NCBI GenBank assembly: GCA_963971425.1
Contig: OZ020515.1
Coordinates: 17,438,291-17,502,290, forward strand
DNA: 64,000 nucleotides
Source: Bryoerythrophyllum caledonicum
Lineage: Eukaryota > Streptophyta > Bryopsida > Pottiales > Pottiaceae
Reading direction: 5' to 3'
Shown: piece by piece, positions 2,772 to 28,547 of the stretch
Layout: every line of letters starts with the position of its first letter
Numbering within the stretch: position 1 is the first letter of the stretch
Notes under the pieces: generated by a model
What the model saw: only the letters and a program-made list of their open reading frames with translations
Database searches by the model: none
Told to the model about the DNA's origin: nothing
Position numbers and translations under genes: made by a program

Positions 2772-3967
2772 ACTTGCCCAAATCCTCAAACCGTGGTTCT
2801 TACCACGACCAACCCCTTTTATCCCAACTCCTTACTTATTAAAATCCACACATATAAAGACTAATACTTGTATGTACATGATGGAAGAATTTCCATCAAG
2901 ACACCGATCCCACAACTCACACCCCGAACCTCAAAACAAGGGGGATATCTATCGAGAAAACTAGCCAAAAAATGGAAACAACATCTTGTCACATATCACA
3001 CTATTCGTAAAACAATTTACATTGCTAAAACCAACCAAAATTGGCGAAACCACCCAATACTCTCCGAACTACAAAACCTCCGTCACCCCCAAATCCCACA
3101 AGTACCACCACCCAACACCCCTCACGAAGACTGGTTAAAAGACATTGCTACCACTGCAAAAGATGCCAACAAAGATGCTAGAAAAATTACCACAAAATAT
3201 GCAAGAGAATGTGTCAAAAAGGCCATATCTAAGTACCGCCTATTGTACGAAACCAGCCCAAAAAAGGTTAACAGAAAAGTCTTTAAAAATAAGACAAACC
3301 TGCCACTAGACTGTATCTTAGATCATAACAATAACATTCTAACCAGCCCAGATGACATCGCAAACGAAATACATTTTCAACAATCCATAAACAATAAACC
3401 ATCCACCCCTCCATGCCACTTCCAACCACAACATACACCAACATGCACGTGCGGAGTTAGGCAATACCCGTGGCATGATTTGGACGGATTTACCATTGAT
3501 AAAAGAGGCGAACCAACAACACCTCTCCACACATATTATAACAGAGACACATACAACATGTGCATTGAACATCTGGGAACCAACAAAGCCCCCGGCCCGG
3601 ACCATATACCTAATTCAATCCTAAAACACATGCCCCCCAGATTCCATGACCTTCTATCATTATTCTTCCTTCATTGTTACAAACAAAAATCCATCCCCGC
3701 ATCTTGGAAAACAAGTTTAACAATCCTACTATACAAAAAAGGCAACCCATCCGAGCTACCTAACCACCGACGTTTCGCCTTAGCTAACACCACTTACAAG
3801 CTATTCACTAGCACACTAACATCAATACTATCGGCCTACGGAGAAAAATACCAAATATTACACAAAAGCCAAGAAGGGTTTAGAGCCGAGAGAAGTACCA
3901 CACGACAACTTCAAACGCTCATTGGCGCCCTAGAAGATGCAAAACTCACAAACAAAGACATCTACAT
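2772..3967 (+). pseudogene. LINE linker and N-terminal reverse transcriptase
   Basis: This continues the APE frame after the inserted element. One TAA at 2862-2864 precedes an open stretch to about 3967. The stretch encodes a basic linker and the first RT blocks: NKAPGPDHIPNSILKHMP (about 3583-3636), RRFALANTTYK (about 3770) and SQEGFRAERSTTRQL (about 3870-3915). The next RT block is read one frame over, so a one-base shift lies near 3968. Length and order fit the fingers and palm of a LINE RT. Confidence 0.75.
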
Positions 3968-9399: not shown

Positions 9400-9756
9400 C
9401 ACTTATAAATGTTAACTCACTATATTTGTTAACAAAATCGTACTCCCCTCATATTGCTAACTAGAATGTTAACTATGTTAAATGTTAACAATAATTTACT
9501 CCTCTCTTTGTTAATTTGCCACTTATAAATGTTAACCTACAAAATACATTCTATACTGTGTAATGACATCCATTACATTGACTCACAACCTTTCAAAGTG
9601 GCAAAAGCCACCAAATTTGACTTTTGTGATCAAATTATTCATGTGGACTATATTGGAGATGTTTCATACTAATGAACGCCGGCACTTTTAATAACAATCT
9701 ACAAGAAAATACGGTCCCCCCTTGGCTACTCCCATGCTCATGTATGACCCAAAGAA

Positions 9757-9783
9757 CACCATATTCGTTATACTGGGAGATTT
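9757..9783 (+). repeat. 18 kb element left terminal inverted repeat
   Basis: CACCATATTCGTTATA followed by C, then TGGGAGATTT. It pairs with 28085-28111, with a single C/T difference. One extra base (A, 9756) separates it from the AAAGA duplication. Confidence 0.9.
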
Positions 9784-10096
9784 CCATGACTTTGAAGATA
9801 TATGATCTTTGAAGTATCAATATATATAGATATTTGTAGGTGCAAAGTATAAAGACAATGTACCAAGAATAATATATTTCATTCCATGGATGGACCAAAT
9901 TAGCCGAATTTCCAAAAAAAAATAACGGTAAAAGAAGCAAATACCATTAATCCAACCTTTATTAAAAACAACATGAAAAAAAGGCACACACAACACTCAT
10001 ATACCCCGAGCATTTACTCAATCAACCAAAACAATTTAGCTCTACCCGACCTAAAGTGTAATAGAGATCTAAGCGTACTATTACTAATCAAATAGT
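9784..10096. other. Left subterminal DNA of the 18 kb element and gene A 3' region
   Basis: AT-rich, with no coding frame. A 45-bp segment at about 10032-10076 (TTTAGCTCTACCCGACCTAA core, then AGTGTAATAGAGATC) recurs at about 10874-10918 inside gene A intron 5. It looks like a half-decayed palindrome copy. Confidence 0.5.
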
Positions 10097-10383
10097 CTAG
10101 GGAGTTCCTCCATAAGCCTTAATACGCAACTTCAAAAAAGCCCTCTGACGCTGCCTAGTCCATGTTGCGCCACTCTCTTGCATTAATGGACTCTCTAGAA
10201 GACGCTGCAAACCCCGCCTACGCACCTCGTCAGTGTTTGACTTGGGCAGCGAGTGTCGACAGGTGGGAGCAGATGGAGAGCATTGGTTTCCAACAGCATT
10301 TCTTGAGAGAATACGAGGGCGGAGACATTTACTAGATGGTTCCTGCACAATAGGCACCACATACATTCCAAACAAATACACTT

Positions 10384-10440
10384 TAGAATGGAGCTAAAAT
10401 AGCTACATTCCAAACAAATACATTTTAGCTCCATTCTAAC
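10384..10440. repeat. Inverted repeat filling gene A intron 6
   Basis: TTAGAATGGAGCTAAAA and its complement TTTTAGCTCCATTCTAA face each other around a loop of about 23 bp. The 98-bp intron (10343-10440) is almost entirely this structure. It is a variant of the element's palindrome (AGCTC core). Confidence 0.7.
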
Positions 10441-10952
10441 TGAACGAGGCCACTGTGGCGAAGGGGAGTTGATTCTATTATGATTAGGCTCCCGTGCAAT
10501 AGGGCTTTCGACAACTCCATCGTCCACTGCCATGGTCGAATAATCCATAGTTGACTGCGCGATTGCAGCAGAGTGCAACAAGAGCCCTTTACTCCGAAGG
10601 GAAAGGGCGAACTCCTGTGGACCCAGCAAGGAATCCACGGACGCCCGACAATCACAGTCCTGTAGAATTTTCAACCAAAGTGACGCTCAAATACCGGAGA
10701 ACAATAGATGAAAACTCCATGCATTCAAAAAGGACGATATTCCATCAGCAGAAGGTATCCAACCCGCACAACAAACAAAGTTGCGAAACATCTCGGTTTC
10801 ATTATGAAAAAATATATATACAAAAAAATGGTCCAACAAAATTTACAAAATGGAGCTGAAGTCAATCGATACAGATTAGCTCTATTCGACCTAAAGTGTA
10901 ATAGAGATCGAGGCGTATATCAACTGCATTAAGAGCGGAGACCCTGAGACAC

Positions 10953-11596
10953 TTGGATTGCGTTCCAGATACTCACAGACTGACCACACGTCTTCTGATC
11001 ATTATAGAACATCTCCCGGCCCGAGGGATGTTCGGCACGATACTGCGCTACCCCACGCGGAAACAGATGAAGGTCAGAGAGATATGGCAACAATTCCTCC
11101 AACAGCACAGAATCGTCCCTCGCGCCATTATGTTTGCGCGACCATGATGGAAGAAGAAGGACATTCTCCGGCAAATTGAGCATATGCTTAATCGGGCTGT
11201 CGTCAATGACAAGCGTATTCGCCGGAGTATACTCACGACCCAACCTATTGAAGAGATGGTTCGATAAGGTCTTCAAGAAGATGTCCTTCTGAGTGCCGAA
11301 TTCCTTCATGTAGATTGTTCTGTTACCGACTCTACGCTCGGGAATCCTATCGCAACTCTCCTGACCAAAGATCCTGAGAGGGTACGAAGAACTTCGCTGC
11401 CGGCCGAAGTAGGCCCTAAAGCCGAGTGAATGGACGGGATAGAGTCCCTCGATCCTCTGGCCTGCCACGACGGCTCACACGTGCATAGAATCCCATTGAG
11501 GTCCAGCACAACATTCAACCACCTGCCCTCGAAATCTGATAGGACTCTAGGTATTTCTTCTAGATTACTGGCACCACTTATGGATGCCTCGCATAC
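10953..11596 (-). pseudogene. FCP1/NIF-type HAD phosphatase-like domain (gene A exon 5)
   Basis: After an acceptor at 11597 the frame encodes NVVLDLNGILC, the DxN/DGxL nucleophile motif of FCP1-like HAD phosphatases. The rest of the domain is one frame over: GRQRSSSYPLRIFGQESC, KDIFLKTL, TPANTLVIDDSPIKHMLN (the DD metal-binding motif) and LLEELLPYLSDLH. A one-base deletion between about 11440 and 11500 explains the change. Known relatives dephosphorylate the RNA polymerase II tail or other Ser/Thr substrates. The second Asp of the nucleophile motif is Asn here, so catalytic activity is uncertain even before decay. Linked to the rest of gene A by phase-compatible introns. Confidence 0.55.
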
Positions 11597-12095
11597 CTGG
11601 TTCGGAAACGCCAGGAGAATGAACAATATTACTAATGATTCATTAACAACGACGGGCCAACAAAATGTAGAACGACAGAGGCAAACAGGGGAGAGGCGTC
11701 ATGAGGGGGGGGAGTGGATTGTGAAAAGTGTTTGAAGAGTACCTCGAGAACTTCATCGTCTTGCAGCATTTCGTCTCGGACCTCCATCGATCCCAACGAA
11801 CCCTGCATGGTGTCAAGGGGTTCCGAGAGCCCCACAATTATATGAAGGAACGGTCCTGGGACGAGAAGCGGTGGCTGCGGGACAGCAGAATCTTGATTGA
11901 TCTCGTCTACGAGCACGGGCGAAGCTTGGACGACCCCTTCTACGACAGGGACTGCAGTTTGGACGACCTCATCTATGACTGCGTGAGCGATCCCGTCATT
12001 ACCGAAACTTAGATCTGAAAAAATTCAACAACTTCAACCTATCAGTAGACGCGCACAAAAGACAGTGATACAAGTCAGAGCCGTCAGACGTCAAG

Positions 12096-12122
12096 CAGTT
12101 TAGCTGGAGTCGAGCTGAAGTG
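12096..12122. repeat. Palindrome in gene A intron 3
   Basis: Degenerate copy of the 27-mer (TTTAGCTGGAGTCGAGCTGA), centred at 12109, in the 210-bp intron 12015-12224. Confidence 0.7.
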
Positions 12123-13137
12123 CTCGCTGAGCACTGTAATATTAACAAAAAAAATACAGTGGTACAAAATTGGACATTTACAAAATGTTCTGCTTCTATA
12201 CACTCGCAACTACGTTACACTAACCTGACGATGAGCTGGAGACAGGAACGATTGATACGCCCCGAGCGGGAGACTTCGGAGGGGATGAGGGACGGGATGG
12301 CGGGGATGGAGGATCAGGAAGCGATTGACCCCCCATGGACACGGGGGAGGCACCCGACGGAGACGGCAGGGGAGGTTGTGGGATCGTAGGAATAACTGCG
12401 AGGGGTGTCGTAGCAACAGGAGGCAAATTTGCCGTCATGAATCTCTGCATCATGAGCATCATATCGGCATGCCTCTGGTCTTGGTCCCTCTTCATCTCTT
12501 CATCACGCCTCCGCTGCAGATCTCTCAGCTCCTGGTCACGCTCCGGAAGCCGTTGCTCCATCAACCTCCGATGGGCTGCCTCCTCTTCGAGCTTCTTCTC
12601 GAGGAAGAGAAGCCTGCTGTCATCCTGAGCGCTGCTCGCCGTAGCCAACGGAGAGCGGCCGCTGGCGCTGGCGACTTTCCTCTTTTTCGCTGCTGGACGA
12701 GCGGATGAAGCGCCCAAGGTCGGAGCAGAATGAGGCCGGTCGGAAATATCCAGCGAATCCAACTCTGGGAAGTTGAGTCGTTACCGGGAGGAACCGATTG
12801 TGTCCTCTACTTCTGATTGAGAGACACTGTGATACTCTGGCGGAGTGTTGGTCTCGAAATCGTCAAAGGATGCATCATCCGGAGTAGCGGTGCTCGAGCT
12901 CGGACACACAACCATTGCGCTTGGGTCCTCATCTTCCTCCTTATCGCCGAGGTCAACAACTACTTTCCCCTTCCCCTTGGAAACGGCCTCTCCAAGCTCG
13001 GGGAAGATCTCCGCGTTGACGTGGTACGCAGAAACATTGAAATCGGCCCGATCCAACGTCAGCGCGACCTCCATGGCGTTGTCGTGTTCCTCCTCATCGG
13101 TGTCGTGGGAGATGCAGAACGCCTCTAGATCCAACAT

Positions 13138-13423
13138 CTACACACCAAATGGATTGAACAAGTTACATTTTAGGTCGAATCGAGCTAAAGTAAATGTATA
13201 CATTTACTGGAATGAAAACTCAGCGATTGCAACTAGAATGCTTACGGCGTAATGACGTCTGCTAGAAAATCATATAAGTATAAGCCAGCACTTTTAGCTC
13301 GAGTCGAGCTAAAGTGCCAAGCAACAAACGCAAAAGAGACAAGCTCTCCGAAACAATTCAAGTACATTCATAGAGGGTATCAACAGTTTAGCTCGACTCG
13401 AGCTAAACTGCAGGAAAACTTAC
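13138..13423. repeat. Three palindromes in gene A intron 2
   Basis: This 286-bp intron holds 27-mers centred at 13179, 13303 and 13397. The last two are perfect in the core TTAGCTCGAGTCGAGCTAA, the third having C at the centre. Exon flanks are free of the motif. Confidence 0.8.
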
Positions 13424-14791
13424 CACACTTGCAATGAGCAATTTCGTCCCGCCAAATAGTTGAACAACTGCATCCCCCTTCTTGCAGAACTGCGCCAAGA
13501 CCTTGATGAAGAACTCCATCCTCAGCTCGTTCATGTTCATGGAGTACGCCAGCTCGTTGTACTTGCGAAGCTTGGTGTGCAACACATGCTCAGGAGCTGC
13601 GTAGGTCTTCTTCACGGCGGGGATCAACGTAATCTCCTTCTTGAAGAGGAAAAGAAGGCGAACTGGGTCGAGAGCGTTGTTGCTCTTTACCGCGAATCCC
13701 CCCAAGCGCTCGTTCTCGGAGGGAAGATACTTGGACTGCAGCACATCGTACGCATGGCACAACGACGGGCCCTCAGCATACGCTGTCACTTGAAGATGTG
13801 ACTGCTCGTCGCCGCAAATAAAGAGCCAGGCCCGAAGATCGGTGAGGGGAGGCTGCCCTTTCGATTCGAACATCGTCATGAACTCGTCGAAGAAGGGCCT
13901 CTCCAACGACGACGTGGCCTTCCCAGAGAAACCTGGGATATTCCGGAAGTCGATGATGCCGAGCTTCACGTTGCAGCCCATGTTACGCCACGAATCTGAG
14001 GTCCATCCTCCGAGCGAGTTGGTTGCCGCCTTGTATGGACGAAAGTGCAAGGCCCCCTGAGGTACAACGAACTGCGACCGCACATCAATGAAGACTCTGA
14101 AGAACTCCTTCGCATACGGAGAGAGATCTTCACATTTGCAGTTGCGAAACTGCGTCTACCTCGAGTTGGCGTAGTACGAATCCGGTGGACCCCAATCCAA
14201 GAGGGCACGCTTTGAGGCCTTGCTGACGTTGTAGATCGTCTTAAACTTTTGCCAGCTGGAACGACTGTACACTCCAGAGCTGTTGAAGAAGGCCAGCTCC
14301 GGCCTGATTAACTGTAGCTCCATCCGAGCGACCTCCTTCCTCTTTCTTCGATCGACCCAGTCCCGAGCGCTATAGCAATCCTCCAGCACAGAAGTCGGTT
14401 GCTTAACAACCACCTTAGGATAAGGTAATTTTTGCGATGGCCCTGATCGATTCAGAATGTGCTTGCACAATTTTGCGTGATCAGCCTCGGTCATGTTGCC
14501 GAAAAACTTGAAGAACTCGCGCGTGAGAACCCCATCCTTCTCAGGCACCCAAAACTTGGCGTCCTTGAACTTTGCCAAGGGCGTTGAAGTCGAATCGACA
14601 TTGATGAGGTCGCCATGCGCCGCCGAAGAAATGACATCCGACCACAGCTTGAAGGTCTCATCGATCGAGGTGATGATCTTCACCTCGTTCGTAATCGATA
14701 GCTCCTTCGCCTTTCCAGCTTTCTTGAGCGCAGCCTGGCTCTTCGCAACGTTGATCATTGCAAAGCACTCACGAACCGCGTTAAGGAATGG

Positions 14792-15017
14792 CTGCACAGA
14801 AATTAACAATGTAAAATTAGATTATATTCTGATCAGTTCATAATCATATTCAGTAGGATCTGGAGCTGCAAGTTAGCTCGAGTCGAGCTAACTTGCAAAC
14901 CTGCGAGTACACACTATACAATGATGAAATCCACACTAAATACTATACCGCAAATGAGTATGCATGCAAGTTAGCTCGAGTCGAGCTAATGTGCAGGACC
15001 TTGCTTAGTAATATTAC
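14792..15017. repeat. Two palindromes in gene A intron 1
   Basis: This 226-bp phase-0 intron holds palindromes at 14868-14896 (perfect, ends GCAAG/CTTGC) and 14966-14994 (nearly perfect), centres 98 bp apart. Confidence 0.8.
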
Positions 15018-16464
15018 CTCAAACTTCTTGTCATTTGCAATCTCAACTGCCGTTCTCCGACCTGATTTGTGAGACCCCTGAACGCCTGCGGCAGAGTGCT
15101 TTGGCATTGGTCTCCCAGCTTGGATCCATAAAGCCCGAGAGCCGAGGATATTGGTTGCCAACGTTGGCTTGAATTGGACCAAATGATTGACGCGATTATA
15201 ATACGCGGAAATCTTTCTCAGCTTCTCCAAATCCTGCGTCCAGACAATATAACACTGCCACGTTCGGAAGTGCCTTCGCATCACCTCCGAGACGTTGCCG
15301 TTAATCATCGCCTTTGATGCTGCAACGCTGTGCTGACCGTTGATGATGTAGTACTCGTAGTCACTGAGCTCTTCAACGGTCGTAGGCATGGCATCAAGCT
15401 TCGGCATGACGCAGAGAGTCTGCTTTTGTGTTTTGTCTGGCATTTGGAGGTAGTAATGCTTTAACTCCTCCATACCCCGAGGTTCGAATGCACGGATCGT
15501 CCACTCCGGCGGTGCAATATGCAACCTCATCACGTCGAGCTCGATCTTCATCTCCCTGTCTTCTTGGAAGAAGCAGCTCTGACACTCCGTCCAAAATTTC
15601 TGGTAAATCTGTTGGACGTTGTTGTAGTCGATTTCCTCTCCAAACCCGAGTGCCTGTGGAAGCTCGAAGAGTGCGGAGGCCATTGAATTGGCCATCTCGT
15701 CCTCTGAATGGAGCTTCGTCTTCTTCCTCGAAGAGGTCTCAGGCTTCTTTGCAGCTGAGCGCTTCTTGACGGGGGAAGCAGAGAGCGTGTTGCAAAGGGT
15801 GCTTCGACTTGTTCTCGCACCTGGTGTTCTAACCGGTACCGACGCTTGGCTCATATCCTGGCTACCCGTCACGGCCCCCGAAACTATCGATATATCTATC
15901 GGGCGTCTTACCGCGATATTCTTTGCCTTCTCTAGAGCGGCAAAGGTAGTCATTCTCGATAGAATGACGCGGAGTTTGTTCGCTACAGCCTTAGCTTTCA
16001 ACGGCTGACCACTACTAGTCTCCCATTTTTTTTGGGAGACTTCGTGGTCGATCTGAGCCACTACTTCTTCAAATTTAGACGGCCTAAGAGAATCGACTAA
16101 ATCCTGGATAGAGAAGGGAGAAGAATTATTGTTTACTAGAATAGTAAACAAATAAGGATCTACGGACGCAGTGGTTGTCTCACACGACAACTTTACGTGA
16201 TCGTTATCCTCGTGGATTACATCCGTAATTTTGGTCGTGAAGTCAATGTGCTGAGGTTCGGCGATGTCACCAGCGAAGGTCTGACCGAATACCAGATTTT
16301 CTGTAAACGTGGCCCAAAGAAGCGTCCACTTCAGCGTCATGGATGGGTCTTTCAGCTCCCAGCAATCCAAGTGGTTGTTGTCGTCTCCATCGTCATCATC
16401 ATGGTCGACGAGCTTTGGCTGGAAGAAGTGTTGCAGCTGATTCACCACCCGGTCTCTCTCTGAT

Positions 16465-17356
16465 CTGCACACACGAAATCAAGCACAAGAATTAGATTCA
16501 GAAATTGATCATTCAAATAGGATAGAGAGATTACGCTTTAGCTCGAGTCGAGCTAAAGTGTAACCAAATACAAGTATGTCAATAATACTCTTCATTAAAA
16601 TATAGTTATTTTTAATTGAAATTCCTAGACCCTTTCAATCAATTCATGTCCTCTTTATGTTCAACTCTCTTAAACCGCGGAAAAGCTTACGAACCGATTC
16701 AATCACTCACGAACCGCAGGATCTGAGATTCTCAAGTGGTTGAAACGGGACTGAAGCTCATGCACGATTCAGGAGAGGTGAACGAAAAGTAGACATGAGT
16801 TGAGATACTATACTGCAATTACACGGTGATAACAATGTAGAATTTAAGCAAATGCTACATCTTTAGCTCGACTCGAGCTAAAGTGCTATTACAAAGAATG
16901 TAAAACTAAACAGTTTCGACACTTACAATATTCATTTGGAGGACTTTCCAAGACTTTTTTATTCAATTCATGGCTACTTCTCGTTCAACTCTCAAAACTG
17001 TGGAAGAGCTTCAGTTCTGCTTTAATCACTCATGAACCTCACTCTTCAAGATTCTCAAGTGGTTGGAGCGGGACTGAAGCTCTTGCACACTAGTGAAAGG
17101 TGAACGAGAAGTTGACATTTGTTTAGTCGTAGATATCATTGGTAAACTGAGCTTTTGGAACGATTTAAGTCCGAATGTAGTTGTGTTTGAGTTGTTGTTT
17201 AAGTTCATTGTTTTACACTTTAGCTCGATTCGAGGTAAAGTGTGTTGGCTTTTCAGAGAGGCCATGTCTAATTTCAAAACCAGAGTTTGAGAGAATATAT
17301 TAAGATTACATTTCCAGGAGTCGCTTTTTGGGCAACCGAAGACGTACTCAGTCGTA
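16465..17356. repeat. Upstream region of gene A: duplicated block with palindromes
   Basis: A block of about 190 bp is present twice in direct orientation (about 16618-16805 and 16930-17120). Both contain CTCAAGTGGTTG and GGGACTGAAGCTC. Palindromes precede each block (16534-16560, 16859-16885) and a third sits at 17216-17242. On the minus strand each block carries ATGTC(A/T)ACTT followed by a short frame and a GTAAG donor, so it may be a duplicated 5' exon or promoter of gene A. No full coding exon can be proven. Confidence 0.55.
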
Positions 17357-17697
17357 CATTTTAGCTCCAGTTGAGCTATTATGTGACCTTGATACTGAAT
17401 TATAGTCCACACTTTAGCTCGAGTCGAGCTAAAGTGGGACTTTTCTGTGCACATTTGGCCCACTTAAGCTCAAGTTGCGCCAAAGTGCGCTTTCGTGTTT
17501 GCTTTATTGATCACACTTTACCTCGACTCGAGCTAAAGTGTGGCCAAATGTGCACAGAAAAGGCTCACTTTAGCTCAAGTTGAGCTAAAGTGTGGATATT
17601 AGTGCACAGTGGAGGCACACTTTAGCTCGAGTCGAGCTAAAGTGTGGACAATACTGCAATATGGATTTCCCACATTAGCTCGACTCGAGCTAAACTG
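17357..17697. repeat. Phased array of seven palindromes, gene A side (period ~52.3 bp)
   Basis: Palindrome centres are at 17370, 17423, 17474, 17527, 17579, 17631 and 17684, so spacings are 53, 51, 53, 52, 52 and 53 bp. Each unit is a 27-mer of the form CACTTTAGCTCGA, one base, then its complement; copies range from perfect (17410-17436, 17618-17644) to degenerate (17461-17487). Spacers differ in sequence except that 17437-17460 and 17541-17565 are inverted copies of each other. The period is close to five helical turns. The array lies upstream of gene A. Confidence 0.85.
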
Positions 17698-18298
17698 TGT
17701 TCAATGAATTGCGTATTTATTGCAGATTGTACAGATTCGTCATTCGTTATATAATACTGAAGGCGTAGGGTTTAGGGCTCCTGGGTGAGAGTATGGATTT
17801 TACCTTTCAGCCATTGGTTATGAACCTTAATCCCAGACAAATTCTGTTGGAACTAGACTTCCTGCAACAACAATTACAAACCCACACACAAAATCAATCA
17901 AAGTAGCACATGGAAACCAAAACATTGAAATCCTTCACATTGAAATCAACACTTTGAAATGGGCACATTGAAATTCAGCACTTTGAAATAAACACATTGA
18001 ATTCAGCACATTGAAACAATGACATTAAAACCAGCACATTCAAACTAGCAGAAAGTAGCACATTTACACCAGCACAAACCAGCACATTTAAACTAGCACA
18101 GACCACCACAAATATCCACAAACCACCACAAAACCACCACATTCAAATCACCACATTCAAACCAGCACATTGAAACCAATACACACTCTCATCTACGTGC
18201 TCACACATACATCAAAAGCAATGCTACACATATATTATGTTTCAACACATCATATCAAAAGCAAAACTACACAAATATCAAAAGAAATGCAAGACTGA
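17698..18298. repeat. Degenerate CACATTGAAA minisatellite
   Basis: No gene. From about 17936 to 18180 short units such as CACATTGAAATCAACA and CACATTCAAACCAGCA repeat imperfectly every 15-20 bp. Confidence 0.6.
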
Positions 18299-18404
18299 AT
18301 GAGTGCACTTACCTTTAAAAGTGAGAAATCCGACTGGAAAAGCTGGAAGTCTTGTTACTTGTTCATGTCAATCCTCCGCGCACGGCCGTTTCGGACTCTA
18401 CGTG

Positions 18405-18655
18405 CTCACAGAAACTCACAGAAACTCACACACACTCACAGAAACTCACAGAAACGCACACACACTCACAGAAATTCACACACACTCACAGAAATTCACA
18501 CACACTCACAGAAACTCACACACTCATACAAACTCACACAAACTCACACACGCTCATAGAAACTCACACACACTCACAGAAATTCACACAAACTCACACA
18601 AACTCTCACAAACTCACACAAACTCACACAATCTCACACAATCTCATGCAAACAG
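18405..18655. repeat. CACACTCACAGAAACT minisatellite
   Basis: About 250 bp of tandem CACACTCACAGAAACT-type units, decaying to CACACAAACT toward the right. Open frames across it are repeat artefacts. Confidence 0.8.
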
Positions 18656-19665
18656 CCCTAAACTCTAGCGCTACAGTGTACACGAAGTCACACAACAACA
18701 AATCGCACGTCCTACAAACCCTATCCGCAGGAAATCCTAGACTCCAGTAAATTGCACACGGAAGCCTAAACGCAGCGCTACAGTGTACACAAACATAACA
18801 ATCCCTGTAGATAACGAAACTAACACAAACCAACGCATCAACTCACAAAACTCACAAAACAACAACGCCTAGAAGTACACGGAAAACCTGGACTGCAACG
18901 AAAAGAATAGAAAAAAGGCTTGCGCCACGATTTCGTGGGGAACTTTCTGGGCCACCTATAGCCGTGAGGGTCGAAACCCTGTGGCCGTTTGGTGGTCTCG
19001 AGATACCCTCGGGATACCCTTTGCGATATTGGGGTGTAACTCCCGGGTATTATGCCGGATGCACCACAAATCATTCACCTTCGTTACTGATACCCGGACT
19101 TTTAAGAAGCCAATTTAATTTTACCAGAATAAGCTCAAGATATTACGTGCCTGTAGTATTTCTGTACTCGTTAATTTCCAACACAATTTTTCGGAGCCAT
19201 TAACACTACAATTTTGCATATTTTGGGGCAACGAACAGGTTGCAAAAGAAAAGTGATTATTTCCAATTTCATTCGTATGATCTCAATTAAAACTTCTAAA
19301 TTGACATTTTCTCATTAATACACAAACTTAAATTGGACGAAAGTGAACGTTTATAGTATTTAGTGTTTAGTTTTCTTTCATGGTTTTAGTGGATCAGTTG
19401 GCTTTCACTTTACCCGATTTCAATTTTTGAATTACACAAGGAGTAAATTCATTACCATCGATATATATAAGTTCCTCCTACACCAATTATTAGGTGAAAC
19501 ACACTTAAGAGAGTTTTAAAGCTACGATTTTAAGATTCTATTACTTTGAATTCAAGTTTTGTTTTTTTATGAGTTTGATATTATTTTCTATGACAATCAA
19601 ATAGACAATAAGTATGTTAAGACCACATCTTGCAATTGTATAATTATAAAATATATGCCGGTGCA
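18656..19665. other. No gene seen between minisatellite and type-B palindromes
   Basis: Mixed composition at 18660-19080, including a short inverted motif GGGTATCCCGAGGGTATC, then AT-rich DNA. No coding frame or RNA gene is recognised. Confidence 0.5.
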
Positions 19666-19762
19666 CTTTTTAGCTCTAATGGAGCTAAAGTGTGCGTATT
19701 TGCTTTATAGTTCCCTACATTTACTGAAAGTGTACACTTTAGCTCTAATAGAGCTAAATTGT
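19666..19762. repeat. Type-B palindrome pair, 69 bp apart
   Basis: Two copies of the palindrome with a changed middle (AGCTCTAATGGAGCT, AGCTCTAATAGAGCT), centred at 19679 and 19748, flanked by the CACTTT/AAAGTG arms. Confidence 0.75.
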
Positions 19763-19825
19763 GAATTTTTTCTGTACTTTTCACTTCATTTTGCTTTTAC
19801 TGTAACGGTACAAATACAGTTGTTA

Positions 19826-20212
19826 GAGCATCTCCGCCCCTGACGGAGAATTTTCCACGCCAGCGGGAAGGTGCCCAAGTTTGAGATGAAGTGAGGGGGG
19901 TCACCCTTTTCCCCCCGCACCGTCCCCAAATTGGCCACTGTGAGGAAACGCCCAGCACTAACGCCATAGTAGGCTAATTTTTTTGGAGGTTTTTATTGAT
20001 TTCTTTTAATTCCCTCGTGTAATTTCATGCTTGAACACATGCTCTCGGGGAATTTTGGTGTCCCCTGTACTTTTTGTAAATTTACTATTTAGAGGAACCG
20101 GCGCCGCCACTCCAGTGGGCCGGGACACCGGCCTAGGCTTCACGGAGTCGGCTTTACCGTGTTTATTCTTGCATTCCGGTCCCTCGGCCCCGGTAGAGAT
20201 TCTCTTTTTCTA
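19826..20212. repeat. GC-rich block, possible small inserted element
   Basis: A locally GC-rich stretch inside AT-rich DNA. It begins near TTAGAGCATCTCC and ends near GAGATTCTC, which are imperfect inverted ends. No clear target duplication. Confidence 0.3.
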
Positions 20213-20339
20213 GTACACTATTTGTCAACAAGTTGGCAACTAGTTTTAGCCACCATTGTCCTGAATATTATCCCTCATTCGTTCACCTACTACAGTTTAT
20301 TTCGTAATAGCCCTCTATCAAAACTCTTCCCTAGCACAC

Positions 20340-21400
20340 AATTTTGATACGTGATAAATAGTATAAGCTCAAAGTCTTTAGCCTACCGGTCGCCATGCAT
20401 TTATTCTTCGTCTCATCTTCAACCTCAATCTCTTATCCTCTTATCCACAACTATTCTCATTCCCATCTCTTGCATTTTCTTTACATTATTTCATATTATC
20501 TAATGAATATTTAATGTGTAATCAAATATTTAGCCAATAACTAATGACTTTGTAATGATTTTTTAGAGGATAATTCATGTATATTGGTATATCTGTAACT
20601 TTTATGCACAATTAAAGAATATTGGAATTTTATTTATTGAATGTTGGAAGTTTTAAAAGTATATTTATGATAGTTTATTAATATTTATATATTTAATGAT
20701 TATTTAAAGAGTATTTAATGCACTGTTAATGAATAGTTAATGAATAGTGCATAAATTTCTAATGTAAAATTAATGTGTATTTGAATATTTAATGAGTATT
20801 TAATTAATATTTACTGAATATGTAATGCACATTGAATGCGTATTATGTGATGGATATCTAATGAGTATTTTACTTGTATTCCTATATTTATTGTATGTTT
20901 AAGTTTTTTCCTTTTCCAATATTCCTTTCTTTCCTCATTTTCGTTTCCAGAAGAATGTTCTTATATTTCCAGTCTTCTACTTGTAGTTTCATTTTCCCTC
21001 CATATTTTACATTCTACTTTGTCCAATTTTTTATATTTTCCTTTTGCTCCATACCTACGTCCGCTTATTCCTAAGCTCTTTCTTGCAAATTCTTCCTATT
21101 CTACATGCACTCAACCCTTCTTTACTATGATGCTCAAGATGTAATCAAATCATGATTAAGGTTCCCTACAATAACTGTCCACAAGTAAAAAACTTTATGT
21201 TCCACTATTTACTAGGATTGACATTTAGTGTAGTAGTTGGCATTTAGTGTAATATAGTTTTGTCACTACACTTATTGTAAATTTTACAATTACTGTGTGG
21301 ATTCCTATTTAGTGTCCACTACAGTAGAAGCCATCTTCTGTATACTGGAGCTACATAGTGCATTTTTGCTTTCTAATCCACTCCATTTAGTGATGGTGCA
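20340..21400. other. AT-rich DNA with TTAATGAATATTTAATG-like repeats
   Basis: No gene. Between about 20500 and 20870, ATTTAATGAGTATTTAATG-type units repeat irregularly. The remainder is low complexity. Confidence 0.5.
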
Positions 21401-21497
21401 TAATTTAGCTCTAGTAGAGCTAATCTGTGCATATTATCTTTTTAGTTCACTGCACCTAGTGATGAGGCACATGTTAGCACGAGTGGAGCTAAAGTGT
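21401..21497. repeat. Type-B palindrome pair, 69 bp apart
   Basis: Centres at 21414 (AGCTCTAGTAGAGCT) and 21483 (AGCACGAGTGGAGCT). The surrounding 300-400 bp, with TAGTTCACTGCACCTAGTGA spacers, is similar to 27430-27740, so the block is duplicated within the element. Confidence 0.7.
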
Positions 21498-21549
21498 GTG
21501 CACACACTCCTTTTAGTTCACTGCATGTAGTGATGGTGCACACCTCTGC

Positions 21550-22940
21550 TAAAAACCGATCTGATGTATGTGCAATGTGTATTTCCACTTCTACAAACAA
21601 TCATTTTGAACTCCGTACTTCTCTTTATGGATAAGTATTTCACAAGTGGAATAGTAATCTTTTGAATTTTAAGAGGATTTTCAAAATATGTGGATCTAAA
21701 TCTCCAATAGTAATATTAAAAAACAAAAAAATATGACGATCCCCTAGTTTTTAGTGGATATGAAGTCTAAGTATTCTTGGTACCCTAAATCAATAATATG
21801 TGACAATGTGAAAAATAGATGAATGAATATGTAATCTTATATTTCACTAGAAAAATAACATATTTTTTCACAATATCATTCGTTCTAATATTACTTCTAT
21901 GTATTGAAAATACCACATTCCATACTGTGTCATAGCAAAAGGTTTTTTAGGTTGCTCGACGTGCCGGCAATCGAGAAGTTTCTCTTTCGGCTCGCATAAC
22001 TTTTAATGAAGACGTTCATTGAGAAAATAAATTACTTATAAATATGCCTCTCATTGAGAAAATACATTACTTATAAATATGCCTCATTACTTTTATCATC
22101 CTTCTACAAAATTTTGAGAATTTAAAATATAATTTGCGACCACTAGAATGTGCTAAAAAACTAATTATTCCATTTTTTCATGTATAAATAAATTCAAAAT
22201 TACTTATATTACGAACATTAAATTATGCCTGATGCACTAAGTGATACACTTTGTATTAGTTATATTTTATATTTTGATTATCCTTTTTTTGTCATGAGGA
22301 GGTCTCTTCGTTTCTTATTTAAATCTTTTAATATTGTTCCACTCTCTATGTTTTACAAATGACAAAGTCTTCAATTTCACGTCAAAACATGAAATAAATT
22401 GTGTGTAGTCAAGAATTCTTCCATCTTTTATGTCATGCTTAGATTGCCACACCCTAAAGTCATGAAAATACAATGTGAACTCAAGAATAAGATATTTTAA
22501 TCGAAATATTAGTTTGCGCACATTTCAAGTCTTTGAGTACCTCTAAGTGGAAAGTAACCAATTTCAATTGCAAATCCAGACCATGGGGACATAGGGATTC
22601 TTGCCAAAGAATGCACATTCTAAATTGATGACGAAATAGTTACATGACGCACATTTATAAAACCCCAAAGAAATGATGTCCAAAGCACGTTTGAATACAT
22701 TTTTTTTTGCTAAAAAACACGTGCACATATAATATGTTTTTTTGTTTTTTAAAATGCTACTCGTTTGTTAAGGTCTTCGATTTCAACATAATAGATAAGT
22801 CCTATTTGGCTTGTAATAAAAATTATTTCTAATCATCTCAATATCTTCTCTACATTTCCCTATACCTTAGTTGAATTGTCAATATCATGAATCTTCAAAG
22901 TATTATTATATTGAAATGAATTGACATCAGAAGATAACAC
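21550..22940. other. AT-rich region without recognised genes
   Basis: Long AT-rich stretch. A 43-bp segment (ending TTACTTATAAATATGCCTC) is tandemly duplicated near 22017-22088. No domain-bearing frame is seen. Confidence 0.5.
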
Positions 22941-22949
22941 CTAAACCAA

Positions 22950-23098
22950 GGATCCTAAACCCTGAACCCAAAATCTGAACCTAAATTCCAAACCCTAAAT
23001 CCGAAACTCCAAACCCTAAACCCGAAACTCCAAACCCTAAACCCTAACCCTAAACCCTAAACCTAACCCTATCCAAAACCCTGAGCGTTACCCTAAAA
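22950..23098. repeat. Interstitial CCCTAAA telomere-like repeats
   Basis: Degenerate CCCTAAA/CCCTAACC units, the plant-type telomere repeat, in the interior of the 18 kb element. Not a chromosome end, because unique sequence continues on both sides. Confidence 0.75.
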
Positions 23099-23211
23099 CC
23101 GTGTATATAACTCGCATGTGCGAGTATATTCGAGGTATGTACCTTTCCTTATTTTAGTCAACCAGGAAATAGTTGATTCAATTTCCCGCTAAGATTTTGA
23201 ATTTGCACTTT

Positions 23212-23586
23212 TTAGGGGGTGTGGAAAAGTTCCCCCCCCCGCCAATTCTGAAGTTTCCTCCCGCCAATTTTGAAACGGTCGTGTGTCCGTGAGTGACCTC
23301 GCCGATCCTCGAAAACTTTCTTCATTTGTTTCCTTCTCACTTTGGTTGTTGTGCAAGGTTGTTGTAGAGAGGCTTGGAGGTAGTACGACTGTCGGAGCTT
23401 GAAGAGGGCAACATCTATAGGTTGCGCACGGTTGAGCAGGTGAGGCAACAACGTACTGGTTGTCTTCTTCATAAGGTACACAATGTATACTTCTTGCATT
23501 CTCCGTGCACAGTCTCTAGCGATTAGGATGTGACAGTATGTAGGGTTATTGCGCTGGTTCCAGCTGCTACTGTGATTTTGAAGCAT
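23212..23586 (-). CDS. Hypothetical 124-residue frame between the arrays
   Basis: An open frame on the minus strand between the telomere-like repeats and the gene B-side palindrome array. It is Lys/Arg-rich with His/Cys scattered and has no motif I recognise. It could be an exon of an additional element gene or a chance frame. Composition is less AT-rich than its surroundings, which gives slight support for coding. Confidence 0.25.
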   Translation of the reverse strand: MLQNHSSSWNQRNNPTYCHILIARDCARRMQEVYIVYLMKKTTSTLLPHLLNRAQPIDVALFKLRQSYYLQASLQQPCTTTKVRRKQMKKVFEDRRGHSRTHDRFKIGGRKLQNWRGGELFHTP

Positions 23587-23702
23587 CAGTGAGAGTTTCT
23601 TGACGACTAACGGATAGATTTGGGTTGTAGTATACAGAGAGTCAGATTCATGGGCAGAAGAGTTTTTCCATACGAATCCCGAAAAAGGCGCCGAGAATCA
23701 CA

Positions 23703-24014
23703 GAAGGACAGTTTAGCTCGAGTCGAGCTAAACTGTCCTTCGAACGAAGGTAAGACAGTTTAGCTCGAGTCGAGCTAAACTGTCGATTCACTATTGTAGG
23801 ACAGTGTAGCTCGTATGCAGCTACACTTTCCTACTATATTGTTTCGACAGTTTAGCTCGACTCAAGCTAAACTGTCTCACCTTCTTTCGAAGGACAGTTT
23901 ATCTCGACTCGAGCTAAACTATTATACCTTATTTTCTATGTCTTTTTAACTCGACTCGGGATGAAATGACATTGCGTCTTATAGTCATTAAATCAGGTCG
24001 GATCGGGCTAAATT
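23703..24014. repeat. Phased array of seven palindromes, gene B side (period ~46.7 bp)
   Basis: Centres are at 23722, 23769, 23815, 23861, 23908, 23955 and 24002, so spacings are 47, 46, 46, 47, 47 and 47 bp. Arms here read GACAGTTTAGCTCGA, against CACTTTAGCTCGA in the gene A array. The first copy is a perfect 39-bp palindrome (23703-23741). The third has a different centre but complementary arms, and the last two are degenerate. Spacers are unrelated in sequence. Two further palindromes follow, centred at 24110 and 24188. Gene B begins about 110 bp after the last one. Confidence 0.85.
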
Positions 24015-24096
24015 GTCACTATCGAGGGTGAGATAATTTCATATTCGGATTAAAACTAATCGCATTAAATTTTATACTTGTCATATAATACCGCAT

Positions 24097-24201
24097 CAGT
24101 TTACCTCGAGTCGAGCTAAATTTGCCTGTTCTTCAATGTCAATTCACTTGAATCAAATTTATTTTCTAGCGCCAGACTTTACCTCGATTCGAGCTTAATT
24201 A
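24097..24201. repeat. Two palindromes just upstream of gene B
   Basis: Centres at 24110 (TTACCTCGAGTCGAGCTAAA) and 24188 (TTTACCTCGATTCGAGCTTA). They fall outside the 47-bp register and are the closest copies to the gene B start. Confidence 0.75.
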
Positions 24202-24300
24202 TCCTCTTCATATTCTTCTTCATTGATGTCTATTCCTACAAGGTATTCACCCATTCTTATTTGGCAGGGTTATTTAATATTTACCTCATTGGAATGCAGA

Positions 24301-27132
24301 ATGTCGTCTTCGGAGGGCGACGATGTTCATGTTGACACTCCCGTGAACCCTGACCCTCCTGAGTTTGATGTTATTCCTCGCCGTCTCTGGATTGGGATGG
24401 CTGTTTCGCTTCACAATGGTTCGGGTGTTCGCGTTGCGGAGGGGTTGGTTCGCAATGTCCGGTCCACTGCAATTCTAGGTTCCTCTGGTCCTCTTGGGGA
24501 TTCGAATGTTGTAGTACAGGTGTCCAGTACTTTTGTTCTGGAGGAAGCTCCTGATGAATGGAGGTACTCGTTTAAGTCCTGGCCAATTCAACAAGTCTTC
24601 TTAAACGGTGTGAGTCTCTTCCATCATTGCCTTAGGGACGTTTACAATGTCTGGTTGGTTGAGCGTAACAGACCTCTAGGTGGGAGCTCCCATTCGTACG
24701 ACAATTCCTCAAGGAATACACGTCCAACAGTGTCCAAGAATGCTGAATTTCTCATGACCCCTCTTTCCATTAACGCAGTTGCGAGCAATAGTTGTTGCAG
24801 TCAGAACTGTGTACAACACTATCCTAGAGATAAAATAAAAGTCCTTCGGATGCGCTTGTACTGTGAGACCATTGTGCAGTTTAGAAATCATATCAAACTC
24901 GACGTTCATAGATAGTTTCATAGAAACTCTTCGGGTAGGAAGGTTGTGACCCTAGAGGGTGTGGACGTTTGTGCCCATGCTTGGATGAAAATCATGGGTG
25001 TAAGTTCGAGTACTTTCTATCGGAATGCGAAGGACGCTGCCGCTGGTCATGCGGCTCAACACCATGGGAATACCGGTTTGCGTAAGCCTAGAGGTCATAC
25101 GGTTGTGGCTACTGCGGCTCTTTGAGCCATTCTCGATAGACATGCGGACCACATGCCTCACAAGTCCCGTGTTCTCCCATCTGGTGAGAAGGCTGTGGCA
25201 AAGGTCCTTCCTGCAAGTTTTAAGTGGAAGGATCAGATACCGCTTCTTGATGATCATCTCGCTGATTGTGGATTGCCGCCAATCTCAACCTCAAGCTTGA
25301 GTAAGATTCGGCGAGTGAGCTTCCCTGAGTACTATGCCAAGAAAGGTGGAGACAATTTCGCCCGTTGTTCTACGTGTAACAAATACCAGGATCAGAAGAA
25401 GCTTACTCAACCTGGAACACAAGCATCGCTGCTATGGCAAAAGAAGATGCAGGTTCACATCGATTCTGCCTTCTCACATCGGGACTTGTACTACCTGAAC
25501 CGATTTCGATCAAAGTCGTCGCCCAAGGAGGTTCTTACCATCATGCATGATAAGATGGATCACTCAAAGACCGCCTCCCCGGTTTTTTCACATAAAACAA
25601 AGCACTTAGATGGGCTTATGAAATTGCCTCTTGCAATCACAGGCATGCTTGCCCATGGTCATGTGGACCAGCGTTACGCCCATTACGGCCTTGATTTATA
25701 CTCCCATGATGCCAATTACACGGTTGGGTCGTTCGCAAAACTATTGCGTGACTTGAAGGCGCCTCCGAAGTCATCGTCCCGGCAACTCTTTCCTGAATCT
25801 TGCTCTCATCCATTGTATGCGGCGGTGTTACGGGGTGCAAAGATGTGTTTGGATCCATTAGGGCAGATGCCTGATATCCCAGTTCCTGGGAGGCCTTTGC
25901 CACCAATATTGAACGTGCAAATGGACAATGCTGTTGGTGATAACAAAAATAGATTTGTTTTCTGTTTTTGGTCTCTTCTTGTTGCAAAACGCATCTTCCG
26001 CGAGGTATATGTTAATTTTATGCTAGTTGGTCATACACATGATGATATAGATGCATTATTTGGACGTTGGAGTATGACACTGAGGAAGGAGAGTTTTCCA
26101 ACCATTCCTTTGCTCATGAGGTCGTTCATGAAAAATGAGAGTGTTCCCACAATCCCGCATCTCATTCAAGAGGTTCCTGACTTTAAGAAGTTCATTGGGA
26201 ATATGATTGCGGATGGTGATGAAGCTTTGCAGGGTCATACGAAGGCTCATCAATTCAAGTTTTATGTGGACTCAAGTGGTTGTCCGGTAATGAAGTATAA
26301 AATCCTTTGCCATGATGAGGATTGGCTTCCTAAGGGAGGAGAAGGTAGTGGCATCAAATTATGGAAGGAGGATTCTGAAGGGAGGTCTTTATGGCCTCGC
26401 GGAGAACCTGATGCATTGAAGCCTTCTACGATGCGGCATCTCCATGAGGTGGTGAAAGGACTTTCAGGATTCATCGATCACTGGGAGCAATCATCGCGGG
26501 AGTCTGTTGAAGCCCGTTCGCGTTTTGAGCCGCTATCGTACTATTGGCGCGATGTTAGAGATGCTCTGAAACTTCCAATGGATACACCGATATCATTGGA
26601 AGACGGCTTTTGGCCAACGACGCGAATTGCCCATGCCATTGAAGATGAGTTCTCAACGGAGGGTGAGGTTCGCGAGGAGTACCGTGAAGATGAGCATTTT
26701 GTTGGCCAGAGACGCGATCGTCCACCTCCTTCTTTTAGAGTTGATCGTGATTTTTTTGCTGGCTATTTTGTTGCATTGCGGCCTTGTGATGGGGACGAGC
26801 GCCCATTTTGGATTGCTCAAGCAGTTTCAGATCCTAATTCTAATCCGGATATGCCAAACACCGTGCGTATCCAATTCTACCGCCCTATATCGCGCGATCG
26901 GGATGTTCTGAAGTTCTATAAAGATTGGGATATTGATAGCAACCTTCGTTGGACAATTGAAAAGGGGATAGCCATACCGTGGGAGAGTACCGATTCAATC
27001 TTGACAGCATGGAAACCTAGGTCTTCAAAGAGGGATGGAGGTTATGTGCAAGATTCAACTACAAAAATTCCGAAGGGGCAAGTAGCGATTATGAAGGCCT
27101 CCTTGGAAGCACTTGCCAGGTCCGAGTCGTAG
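24301..27132 (+). pseudogene. Gene B of the 18 kb element: DUF7869-like protein, candidate transposase, two in-frame stops
   Basis: A single frame runs from ATG 24301 to TAG 27130-27132, about 943 codons, interrupted only by TAG at 24913-24915 and TGA at 25123-25125. An acceptor-like GGAATGCAG ends just before the ATG, so a 5' exon is possible. Visible blocks are a Cys/His segment (CCSQNCVQHYPRDKIKVLR), VDVCAHAWMKIMGVSSSTFY, CSTCNKYQDQ, IMHDKMDHSKTASP, LNVQMDNAVGDNKNRFVF and FMLVGHTHDDIDALFGRWSM. The last two are, by memory, the signature of uncharacterised plant and oomycete DUF7869-type proteins. The spaced Asp residues could form an RNase H-like catalytic core, which is inference. The ends of the element and the divergent gene A support a mobile-element role. 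Confidence 0.6.
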
Positions 27133-28084
27133 TGGACTTAGATCTATGGACTTTCCTTTTCCTAGATTTTGGATTCTAATGCGTAATACTTCATGTAGTA
27201 TGGTTAGATCCATTGGTGTTGAGATTATAGATATTTGTATTTGATTACACTCTGTATGACTATAATATGTGATGCCAATGATTGCTATGAAATATTCTCT
27301 CCATTGTTTTTGCGTATCGGTGATAATTTGCAGTATGTTTTATTTTCTTTTTAAAATAACAATATGATAAATTGCTTCTAATCTTGAAACCAATAATACC
27401 AGTAATTGTCTTCATGGTGAATGATAGAAAGTAAATGTTGAGTCGCACTTTAGCTCTAGTGGAGCTAAAGTGTGAGCAAATCTTCTTATTTAGTTCATTG
27501 TACTTAGTAATGGTGCGCACTTTAGGTCAAGTGGAGCTAAAGTGTGTGGAATTGCCTTTTTGAGTTCATTGCACCTCTAAGTGATGGGGACACTTTAGTT
27601 CGAAGAGAGGTAGTGTGTGTGCAATTTTTTTCCCACTTCTGAGCACCATCATTTGAAACTCGTTATATATTTTTAGCCAATGTGTATTCCACAAGGAGAA
27701 TTGAAATTCTTTTAAATAAAAAAAAGCTCATCAAAATGTGTTTAGCTAATTCTTTTACAAGTGGATATTTGTCCGTCATTTAGCTCACTTTTAGCTAAAT
27801 TGGAGCATGGTGTTAATCCGGGTTAGTAGGATCGAGTGTGAATATTTAGCTATTCATATTCAATGAACACATGTGGTATAAAAGAAGTGTCGACTAATGT
27901 GTTCTTCTTTTCAATATTATAGTTAGATTCGTAATGCAATGTTATCCGTAGTACTTATTTTTCTAGGGGTTTTTGTAGAAAACATTACCTCCCAATTTAA
28001 TGGAAACTCATATCCCTCCATATTGTAGAAATTAGATGTGCACTTTAGCTCTTATGATCTACATATGTTAATTTGGGAGTTGCT
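27133..28084. repeat. Gene B downstream region with three type-B palindromes
   Basis: AT-rich, no gene. Palindrome copies are centred at 27459 (perfect AGCTCTAGTGGAGCT), 27531 and 27604 (decayed), 72-73 bp apart, with a weaker pair at about 27777-27805 and a half copy at 28040. The block 27430-27740 matches 21390-21690. Confidence 0.7.
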
Positions 28085-28111
28085 AAATCTCCCAATATAA
28101 CGAATATGGTG
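28085..28111 (-). repeat. 18 kb element right terminal inverted repeat
   Basis: The reverse complement reads CACCATATTCGTTATA, then T, then TGGGAGATTT. Two bases (AT) separate it from the AAAGA duplication at 28114-28118. Similar CTCCCAAT-type motifs recur inside at about 27990, possibly subterminal binding sites. Confidence 0.9.
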
Positions 28112-28113
28112 AT

Positions 28114-28547
28114 AAAGATGTCATTGCAACGCTAGGCTCAAACCGGACATCCTTTGTGTTAAAGGTCTACCATATAATGACCCACCACCCGATAACATCA
28201 ACCTAGAATACACCATTCAATTCATTGAGTTCACATATTGCAATGATAGATTTTCCCCAGAAACAATCCAAAATAAAATAGATAAATACCAAGCCCTTAT
28301 TGACGACATCACCGCCCTCGGATGGAATGTCGACCCCCTTATTGTAATCACATCCGGCGCTCGTGCCACCACCTTTATCCCATCTATGAAATCTCTTGAA
28401 GATACCTTCAAGATACCCATTGAAACAATTAAAACCTCCTTTAAAAACATTAACACCATTGCTACTCAATATGCCATGTCCATTCTCCTACATAAATGCA
28501 AAATCGAAAACAATCAAGCCCTCCCCGATACACAGGACCCCCCCTAA
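28114..28547 (+). pseudogene. C-terminal restriction-like endonuclease fragment of LINE copy 2
   Basis: Together with 9658-9755 this gives one open frame ending at TAA 28545-28547. It encodes CHCNARLKPDILCVKG, QFIEFTYCNDRF and KIDKYQALIDD, the catalytic end of the R2-like nuclease. Where copy 1 has the premature TAA at 8003, this copy has CAA (28290-28292). It lacks RT and promoter and cannot move by itself. Confidence 0.8.

What the first reader, a model, noticed from the sequence alone, without database searches (positions are those of the whole stretch)
9756..28113. 18.36 kb TIR-bounded mobile element of an apparently undescribed type
27-bp inverted termini (CACCATATTCGTTATA...) at 9757 and 28111 bracket two divergent large genes and dozens of palindromes. 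The insertion point is exact: it interrupts LINE copy 2, and removal with one AAAGA restores the LINE frame in agreement with copy 1. The cargo (ParB-like/FCP1-like gene A plus DUF7869-like gene B) matches no transposon superfamily I know.
Basis: partly seen in the sequence, partly recalled or inferred. Interest (0 to 1): 0.95.

Follow-up and report, generated by a model that had tools for sequence, protein, structure and literature searches.

The report
Moss transposon encoding ParB-like protein
This is a large, recently active moss jumping gene; besides its transposase it carries a protein with a bacterial ParB-like fold and is studded, between and inside its genes, with mirror-symmetric DNA sites that look like that protein's landing sites.

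Summary
Confirmed: a real 18.36-kb DNA transposon (window 9755-28113) with about 29-bp inverted termini and an exact empty site in a LINE. The terminus occurs 343+366 times in the genome. The target duplication is 4 bp (13 of 17 copies), not AAAGA. Gene B is a DUF7869 protein whose model resembles DDE integrases/transposases; the 4-bp duplication points to the Sola superfamily, but sequence membership could not be tested. CACTA and KDZ do not fit the duplication.

The surprise is gene A: one protein of about 1,500 aa with a PH-like domain, a ParB-type CTPase fold and an FCP1-like domain, under purifying selection. The element carries about 30 odd palindromes (core TTTAGCTCGASTCGAGCTAAA) in promoter arrays and introns; 0 of 17 exact cores lie in exons. 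Thirteen sampled gene A loci of this genome, grouped into five families, all have palindromes in intron 1, but the sequence differs by family. I infer that gene A binds its own family's palindromes. The anatomy matches VANC/VANDAL anti-silencing transposons, but the protein is ParB-like. Binding, CTP use and anti-silencing are inferred, not shown. The window copy is broken in both genes; gene B is intact in 7 of 8 other copies sampled.

The parts
9751..9754 (.). left 4-bp target site duplication AAAG
9755..9783 (+). left terminal inverted repeat AACACCATATTCGTTATACTGGGAGATTT
10929..11695 (-). gene A exon 5 (approximate): FCP1/NIF-like domain with DLNGIL motif; read in two overlapping frames in this copy
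   Evidence: PF03031 E 4.2e-6; Ceratodon relative P0169 E 4.4e-12
11640..12024 (-). gene A exon 4 (approximate), low-complexity acidic
   Evidence: placed by comparison with the Ceratodon protein P0169
12225..13137 (-). gene A exon 3 (MLDLEAF...), in-frame stop near 12781 in this copy
13138..13423 (-). gene A intron 2 with palindromes at 13384-13410, 13293-13313 and a degenerate one at 13169-13189
   Evidence: core identity 0.91-0.96 against flanks 0.68-0.83
13424..14791 (-). gene A exon 2, in-frame stop near 14156 in this copy
14792..15017 (-). gene A intron 1 with palindromes at 14867-14897 and 14971-14989
   Evidence: palindromes also in intron 1 of 13 of 13 other gene A loci sampled
15018..16450 (-). 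gene A exon 1: PH-like domain and ParB-like CTPase-fold domain (start codon uncertain)
16536..17706 (.). palindromes and 52-bp-period palindrome array upstream of gene A
19669..21504 (.). scattered intergenic palindromes (TTTAGCTCTAATAGAGCTAAA type)
23705..24206 (.). 46-47-bp-period palindrome array upstream of gene B
24301..27132 (+). gene B: DUF7869 putative DDE/D transposase, single exon; stops at 24913-24915 and 25123-25125 in this copy
   Evidence: (PF25273 E 2.4e-43)
27446..27625 (.). palindromes downstream of gene B
28085..28113 (-). right terminal inverted repeat (ends AT where the other sampled ends have AA)
28114..28117 (.). right 4-bp target site duplication AAAG

Best explanation
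A Sola-like cut-and-paste DNA transposon of mosses with two genes. Gene B is the transposase; it is inferred to act on the 29-bp inverted termini and leaves 4-bp target duplications (duplications shown, catalysis inferred). Gene A is a ParB-fold protein that, I infer, binds as a dimer to the element's own family-specific odd palindromes, which sit in the promoter arrays of both genes, between the genes and in the introns of gene A. By analogy with ParB it may use a nucleotide to load and spread from these sites (not tested). Bound gene A, with its FCP1-like domain, then most likely keeps the element's chromatin open and transcribed against host silencing, or autoregulates both promoters: a functional counterpart of the VANC anti-silencing proteins of Arabidopsis VANDAL transposons. 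Shown: element, duplications, copy number, recent activity, gene content, predicted ParB-like fold, purifying selection, palindrome placement, and family-specific palindromes at the same place in different gene A families. Inferred: that gene A binds the palindromes (about 0.65), anti-silencing (about 0.4), CTP-dependent spreading (about 0.3).
Against: No binding, expression or methylation data. No ParB family is among the 25 of 28 Pfam families listed for the 45 gene A members, and the ParB box reads GQHSVAASK where ParB has a GERR-type box (recalled), so nucleotide use is doubtful. The FCP1-like motif is DLNG, not DxDx (canonical form recalled), so phosphatase activity is doubtful. Against random non-coding windows of the whole element the palindrome cores are not exceptionally conserved (0.884 against 0.833, 332 of 5000 draws reach it). 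Relaxed quasi-palindromes also occur outside the element, 12 in 45.5 kb against 32 in 18.4 kb inside. Some arm positions that are not conserved in sequence are still complementary, which binding alone does not need and which also fits a hairpin. The gene A families were grouped without a tree, and whether the other families sit in complete elements with gene B was not tested.
Confidence: 0.6

Rival explanations
1. The palindromes act as hairpins (RNA in introns and leaders, or extruded DNA) rather than as protein sites, for example to shape splicing or small-RNA production; or their perfect symmetry is kept by template-switch correction of quasi-palindromes without selection.
For: Arm positions 4 and 8 outside the core vary in sequence yet pair more often than in shuffles (in each of three copies: 1-5 and 0-7 of 2000 shuffles reach the observed value; positions 3 and 7 do not stand out). 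In the window's family palindromes in introns 1 and 2 of gene A begin about 28 and 13 bases after the 5' splice sites, and one follows the intron-2 donor of a divergent family closely. Across one palindrome from each of five families 9 of 15 pairs change on both sides (but I chose these sequences because they are palindromes).
Against: They also fill promoters and intergenic DNA and occur around the intronless gene B. In one family the intron-1 palindrome lies well over 100 bases from the donor (L065-L067). A sequence core AGSTC...GASCT is shared by one palindrome from each of five families, and CA/TG steps outside an unconserved base are kept, which pairing alone does not need.
Confidence: 0.2
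2. The palindromes are binding sites of the transposase (gene B) or an enhancer of transposition, like the subterminal repeats of CACTA elements, and gene A does something else.
For: CACTA elements carry subterminal repeats bound by their own protein (recalled). The right-most exact core lies 0.65 kb from the right end, and degenerate ones lie 0.3-1.1 kb from the left end.
Against: The densest arrays are upstream of the two genes, about 7.5-8 kb from the left end and 4 kb from the right end, and others are in introns; the left-most exact core lies 3.5 kb from the left end.
Confidence: 0.12
3. Gene A is a captured passenger gene carried by an ordinary transposon and the palindromes are an unrelated repeat.
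For: Transposons often carry captured host genes (general knowledge). One of 11 further whole copies, the L037/L038 foldback, has gene B without gene A.
Against: dN/dS 0.13-0.37 between copies; gene A in 10 of 11 further whole copies, one of them only as a fragment; many gene A clusters in Ceratodon and three in Physcomitrium; palindromes in all 13 sampled gene A loci.
Confidence: 0.05
4. It is a CACTA/EnSpm or KDZ element.
For: Termini read CACCA; KDZ elements also carry chromatin-modifying cargo (TET/JBP; PMC12730594 passages).
Against: CACTA makes 3-bp and KDZ 7-8-bp duplications; here 4 bp. No CACCA-based duplication of 2-9 bp in any of 17 pairs. Pfam at E up to 1 finds only DUF7869 in the main gene B ORF.
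Confidence: 0.03

Closest known systems
Sola superfamily of DNA transposons (reported from Physcomitrella among others)
   Same: 4-bp target duplications, TIRs, putative DDD transposase, moss host, size (some Sola exceed 15 kb) (PMC10741241 passage)
   Different: no direct sequence comparison with a Sola transposase was possible; a ParB-like/FCP1-like second gene and palindrome arrays are not mentioned in the passages I saw
VANDAL transposons and VANC anti-silencing proteins (Arabidopsis)
   Same: TE-encoded protein plus motifs enriched in the TE's own non-coding regions, introns included, expanding as tandem repeats and changing between families (PMC5735166, PMC10398659 passages)
   Different: VANDALs are Mutator-like (recalled); their motifs are short and arrayed in one orientation, and palindromes are not mentioned; VANC is not described as ParB-like in the passages seen; here DNA binding is only inferred
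Bacterial ParB-parS, Noc and plasmid KorB-OB
   Different: 8 extra bp between the half-sites; no sequence-level family match listed; GQHS instead of a GERR box (recalled); the shared half-site may be coincidence
TET/JBP-carrying fungal transposons (KDZ and others)
   Same: DNA transposons with a putative anti-silencing cargo (PMC12730594 passages)
   Different: different transposases, target duplications and cargo; no palindrome system in the passages seen

Membership tests
Sola superfamily | 4-bp target site duplication | tested here: met
   13 of 17 pairs exact at 4 bp, 0 of 17 at 5 or 6 bp
Sola superfamily | DDD-type RNase H-fold transposase | tested here: inconclusive
Sola superfamily | sequence similarity to known Sola transposases | not testable with these tools
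   no Repbase sequences held; the Sola paper is not in the library
CACTA/EnSpm | 3-bp target duplication and CACTA/CACTG ends | tested here: not met
   ends AACACCA, 4-bp duplication; definition from PMC10741241
KDZ (Kyakuja, Dileera, Zisupton) | 7-8-bp target duplications | tested here: not met
ParB/Noc/KorB family (gene A) | ParB N-terminal CTPase fold | tested here: met
ParB/Noc/KorB family (gene A) | detectable ParB sequence family | tested here: inconclusive
   no ParB model among the 25 of 28 families listed for the 45 members at E up to 1
ParB/Noc/KorB family (gene A) | binding of cognate palindromes and CTP hydrolysis | not testable with these tools
   bench work needed
VANC-like TE anti-silencing system (functional class) | own-family motifs concentrated in non-coding DNA, in tandem arrays, changing between families | tested here: met
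VANC-like TE anti-silencing system (functional class) | protein binds the motifs and removes silencing marks | not testable with these tools
   no ChIP, methylation or binding data

The most novel reading that the evidence does not exclude
Moss Sola-like transposons run a eukaryotic ParB-parS-like system: a transposon-encoded ParB-fold protein fused to an FCP1-like domain loads on dozens of family-specific palindromes spread through the element's promoters and introns and coats the element to keep it expressed or to hold its copies together; protein and palindrome co-evolve so that each family recognises only itself.
Probability: 0.45. Interest if true: 0.92.

Novelty: new variant of a known kind. 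Interest (0 to 1): 0.8.

Why it matters
ParB and parS partition and silence DNA in bacteria and plasmids (general knowledge). A ParB-fold protein that travels with a nuclear transposon together with dozens of matching palindromes would be an unexpected eukaryotic use of the fold and an independent counterpart of VANC-type anti-silencing, with candidate binding sites kept in introns and promoters. Several gene A families with different palindromes coexist in one moss genome, so protein-DNA specificity can be tested directly. It also suggests what moss proteins annotated as 'FCP1 homology domain' or DUF7869 may be: transposon genes.

Tried and rejected
5-bp or 8-bp target duplication: rejected. 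CACTA and KDZ: rejected on target duplications. Exon 2 of gene A as a degenerate N6/N4 DNA methyltransferase (its GDxVxQLFGGTK stretch resembles motif I from memory): no support from Pfam or from PDB sequences, kept only as a lead. Viral relatives: none confirmed in IMG/VR for gene B or gene A, and no exact palindrome there. The only hit in the prokaryote genome collection is best read as a moss contig misbinned into a cyanobacterial MAG, since it is 75% identical to P0001 over nearly the whole protein and carries the same palindromes (inference). PDB sequence searches with both alignments gave nothing useful. A quasi-palindrome scan also finds 12 in 45.5 kb outside the element against 32 in 18.4 kb inside, so relaxed palindromes are not unique to it; in the window the exact core is (17 in, 0 out). 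Eight 3-kb loci around termini have no exact core, but six of them are left-type ends, whose first 1.5 kb has none in the window either, so I no longer use this against the transposase-site rival. One supposed intron of a divergent family (L076) reads as exon and has no palindrome, while its next gap, a real intron (L077), has one close to its donor. A third palindrome cluster without an exact terminus nearby (C1:13.774-13.787 Mb) was not examined. Literature: searches (held open-access library only; listings seen) showed no description of a ParB-like/FCP1-like transposon gene, and DUF7869 occurs in no held paper. That is no proof of absence. Linkage of genes A and B in the divergent families was not tested: the gene B search meant for it did not complete.
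Full report
What is there. The window lies in a 437-Mb genome of 894 contigs. Relatives of gene B come from unnamed ENA/JGI-type contigs (up to 83-85% identity), Ceratodon purpureus (up to 63%) and Physcomitrium patens (53-54%), so the host is a moss (inference; species not determined). The element runs from 9755 to 28113. The 16-base terminus occurs 343 times forward and 366 times reverse, against 1 and 0 for the reversed control. Among the first 100 of these 709 places, the only ones listed, I took 16 +/- pairs; ten were fetched whole (16.1-19.0 kb), one 9.5-kb foldback was also fetched whole and five by their ends. With the window this makes 17 pairs: 13 of 17 have an exact 4-bp duplication outside AACACCA...TGGTGTT, none has 5 or 6 bp, and mismatched left/right pairings match in only 2 of 272. 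The four failures are L009, L015 (both ends of left type), L033 (3 of 4 bases) and L037 (the foldback). Joining the window flanks over one duplication restores a LINE that aligns to copy 1 with 500 bases on each side and an unbroken translated match through the junction.

Palindromes. AGCTCN5GAGCT occurs 17 times in the window, all inside the element (chance 0.03), and 9-20 times in each of 11 sequences, the window and ten copies. None of the 17 lies in an exon, though exons are 7717 of 18355 bases (chance about 1e-4 on a simple model with partly approximate exon borders). They form a 52-bp-period array upstream of gene A and a 46-47-bp-period array upstream of gene B, lie between the genes, and stand in introns 1 and 2 of gene A about 28 and 13 bases after the donors. 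Across 176 instances the half-site reads CA-N-TTTAGCTC; the unconserved N is nevertheless complementary (0.72 against 0.39 in shuffles, where copies are not independent; within single copies 1-5 of 2000 shuffles reach it). Cores are better conserved than non-coding windows within 150 bp (0.88 against 0.72, 0 of 2000), but not clearly better than non-coding DNA of the whole element (0.83; 332 of 5000 reach it), partly because the 20.5-22.7-kb intergenic stretch is itself well conserved. Genome-wide the perfect 21-mer occurs at 3562 sites, reversed control 0 (only the first places are listed). Two listed clusters without an exact terminus nearby proved to be diverged or truncated copies with gene A, one of them also with gene B; a third was not examined.

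Family-specific palindromes. Searching the same genome with the Physcomitrium protein P0187, which is 31% identical to the window exon 1, finds other gene A families, 32-61% identical to P0187 over exon 1. I fetched intron-1 windows from 13 of these loci, which I group by eye (identity and intron similarity, no tree) into five families, one of them the window's own: 13 of 13 carry palindromes, 21 in 3.9 kb, where mononucleotide shuffles of the same windows sum to about 0.35 and the rate outside the element in the window would give about one. The sequences differ by family: CTTTAGCTCGACTCGAGCTAAAG; CATATTCAGCTCGACTCGAGCTGAATATG; GAAATCAGCTCTTGTCGAGCTGATTTC; CAGTTCAGGTCGAGTCGACCTGAATTG; ATTTAGCTCTATAAGAGCTAAAT. 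The GAAATCAGC family also has 8 palindromes in the 1 kb upstream of its gene A (L075) and one just after the donor of its next intron (L077). Intron-1 read-through in ORFs of other mosses or copies tells the same: strict translations of the palindrome appear behind the donor in 16 of 48 proteins (612 residues in all), 2 times in the 18,987 residues before it, and once in 79,771 residues of 120 gene B relatives. A contig probably from another moss has the palindromes upstream of gene B.

Interpretation. The best-supported reading is a Sola-like transposon (4-bp duplication, DDD transposase and moss host as in the passage of PMC10741241) with a second, conserved protein that recognises family-specific palindromes throughout its non-coding DNA. 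The closest functional parallel is VANC/VANDAL (passages). The closest structural parallel is ParB-parS; KorB's operator TTTAGC(c/g)GCTAAA shares the outer half-site, which may be coincidence. That gene A binds the palindromes, and why, is inference. The covariation count over one palindrome from each of five families (9 of 15 pairs changed on both sides) is partly by construction, since the sequences were chosen as palindromes; what is not by construction is that every sampled intron 1 has one.

State of this copy. Gene A exons 2 and 3 each have an in-frame stop, exon 5 is read in two overlapping frames, and gene B has two stops. The window copy is a dead member; intact gene B frames exist elsewhere.

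Changes made on checking. Whole-copy counts now include the foldback (9 of 11 with both genes); the argument from terminal loci against the transposase-site rival was withdrawn; the way the families were grouped and the choice of sampled copies are stated.

Noticed in passing
window 4028-8002: LINE ORF with RVT_1 and RNase H and, between them, a PCIF1_WW match (PF12237, E 9.4e-10, aa 661-787): a LINE that seems to carry a PCIF1-like domain.
   Followed up: no
window 29088-30784: Tc5/pogo-like transposase remains (HTH_Tnp_Tc5 E 1.5e-11; DDE_1 E 4e-41) next to the element.
   Followed up: no
window 22954-23082: Telomere-like CCTAAAC repeat tract between the two genes; CCCTAAA clusters at a similar place in most other copies, not in c15.
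   Followed up: partly
window 20505-22700: AT-rich non-coding stretch without large ORFs, at least as conserved among copies (mostly 0.91-0.95, one bin 0.86) as the exons (mean 0.885).
   Followed up: no
L037, L038 (G000:C1:25031490-25041399): 9.5-kb fold-back made of two inverted copies of the gene B half, with mirrored flanks: assembly artefact or aberrant transposition product.
   Followed up: partly
L057 (CADCWO010000071.1): Moss-type transposon contig filed under an uncultured Synechococcales cyanobacterium MAG: likely contamination.
   Followed up: partly
P0169-P0184 (Ceratodon): Nine of 16 Ceratodon gene A proteins have UG locus tags and three have VG tags, presumably the U and V sex chromosomes: they look like transposon genes counted as sex-chromosome genes.
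   Followed up: no
window 34390-34863: ORF with DUF7797 (E 3.5e-18).
   Followed up: no
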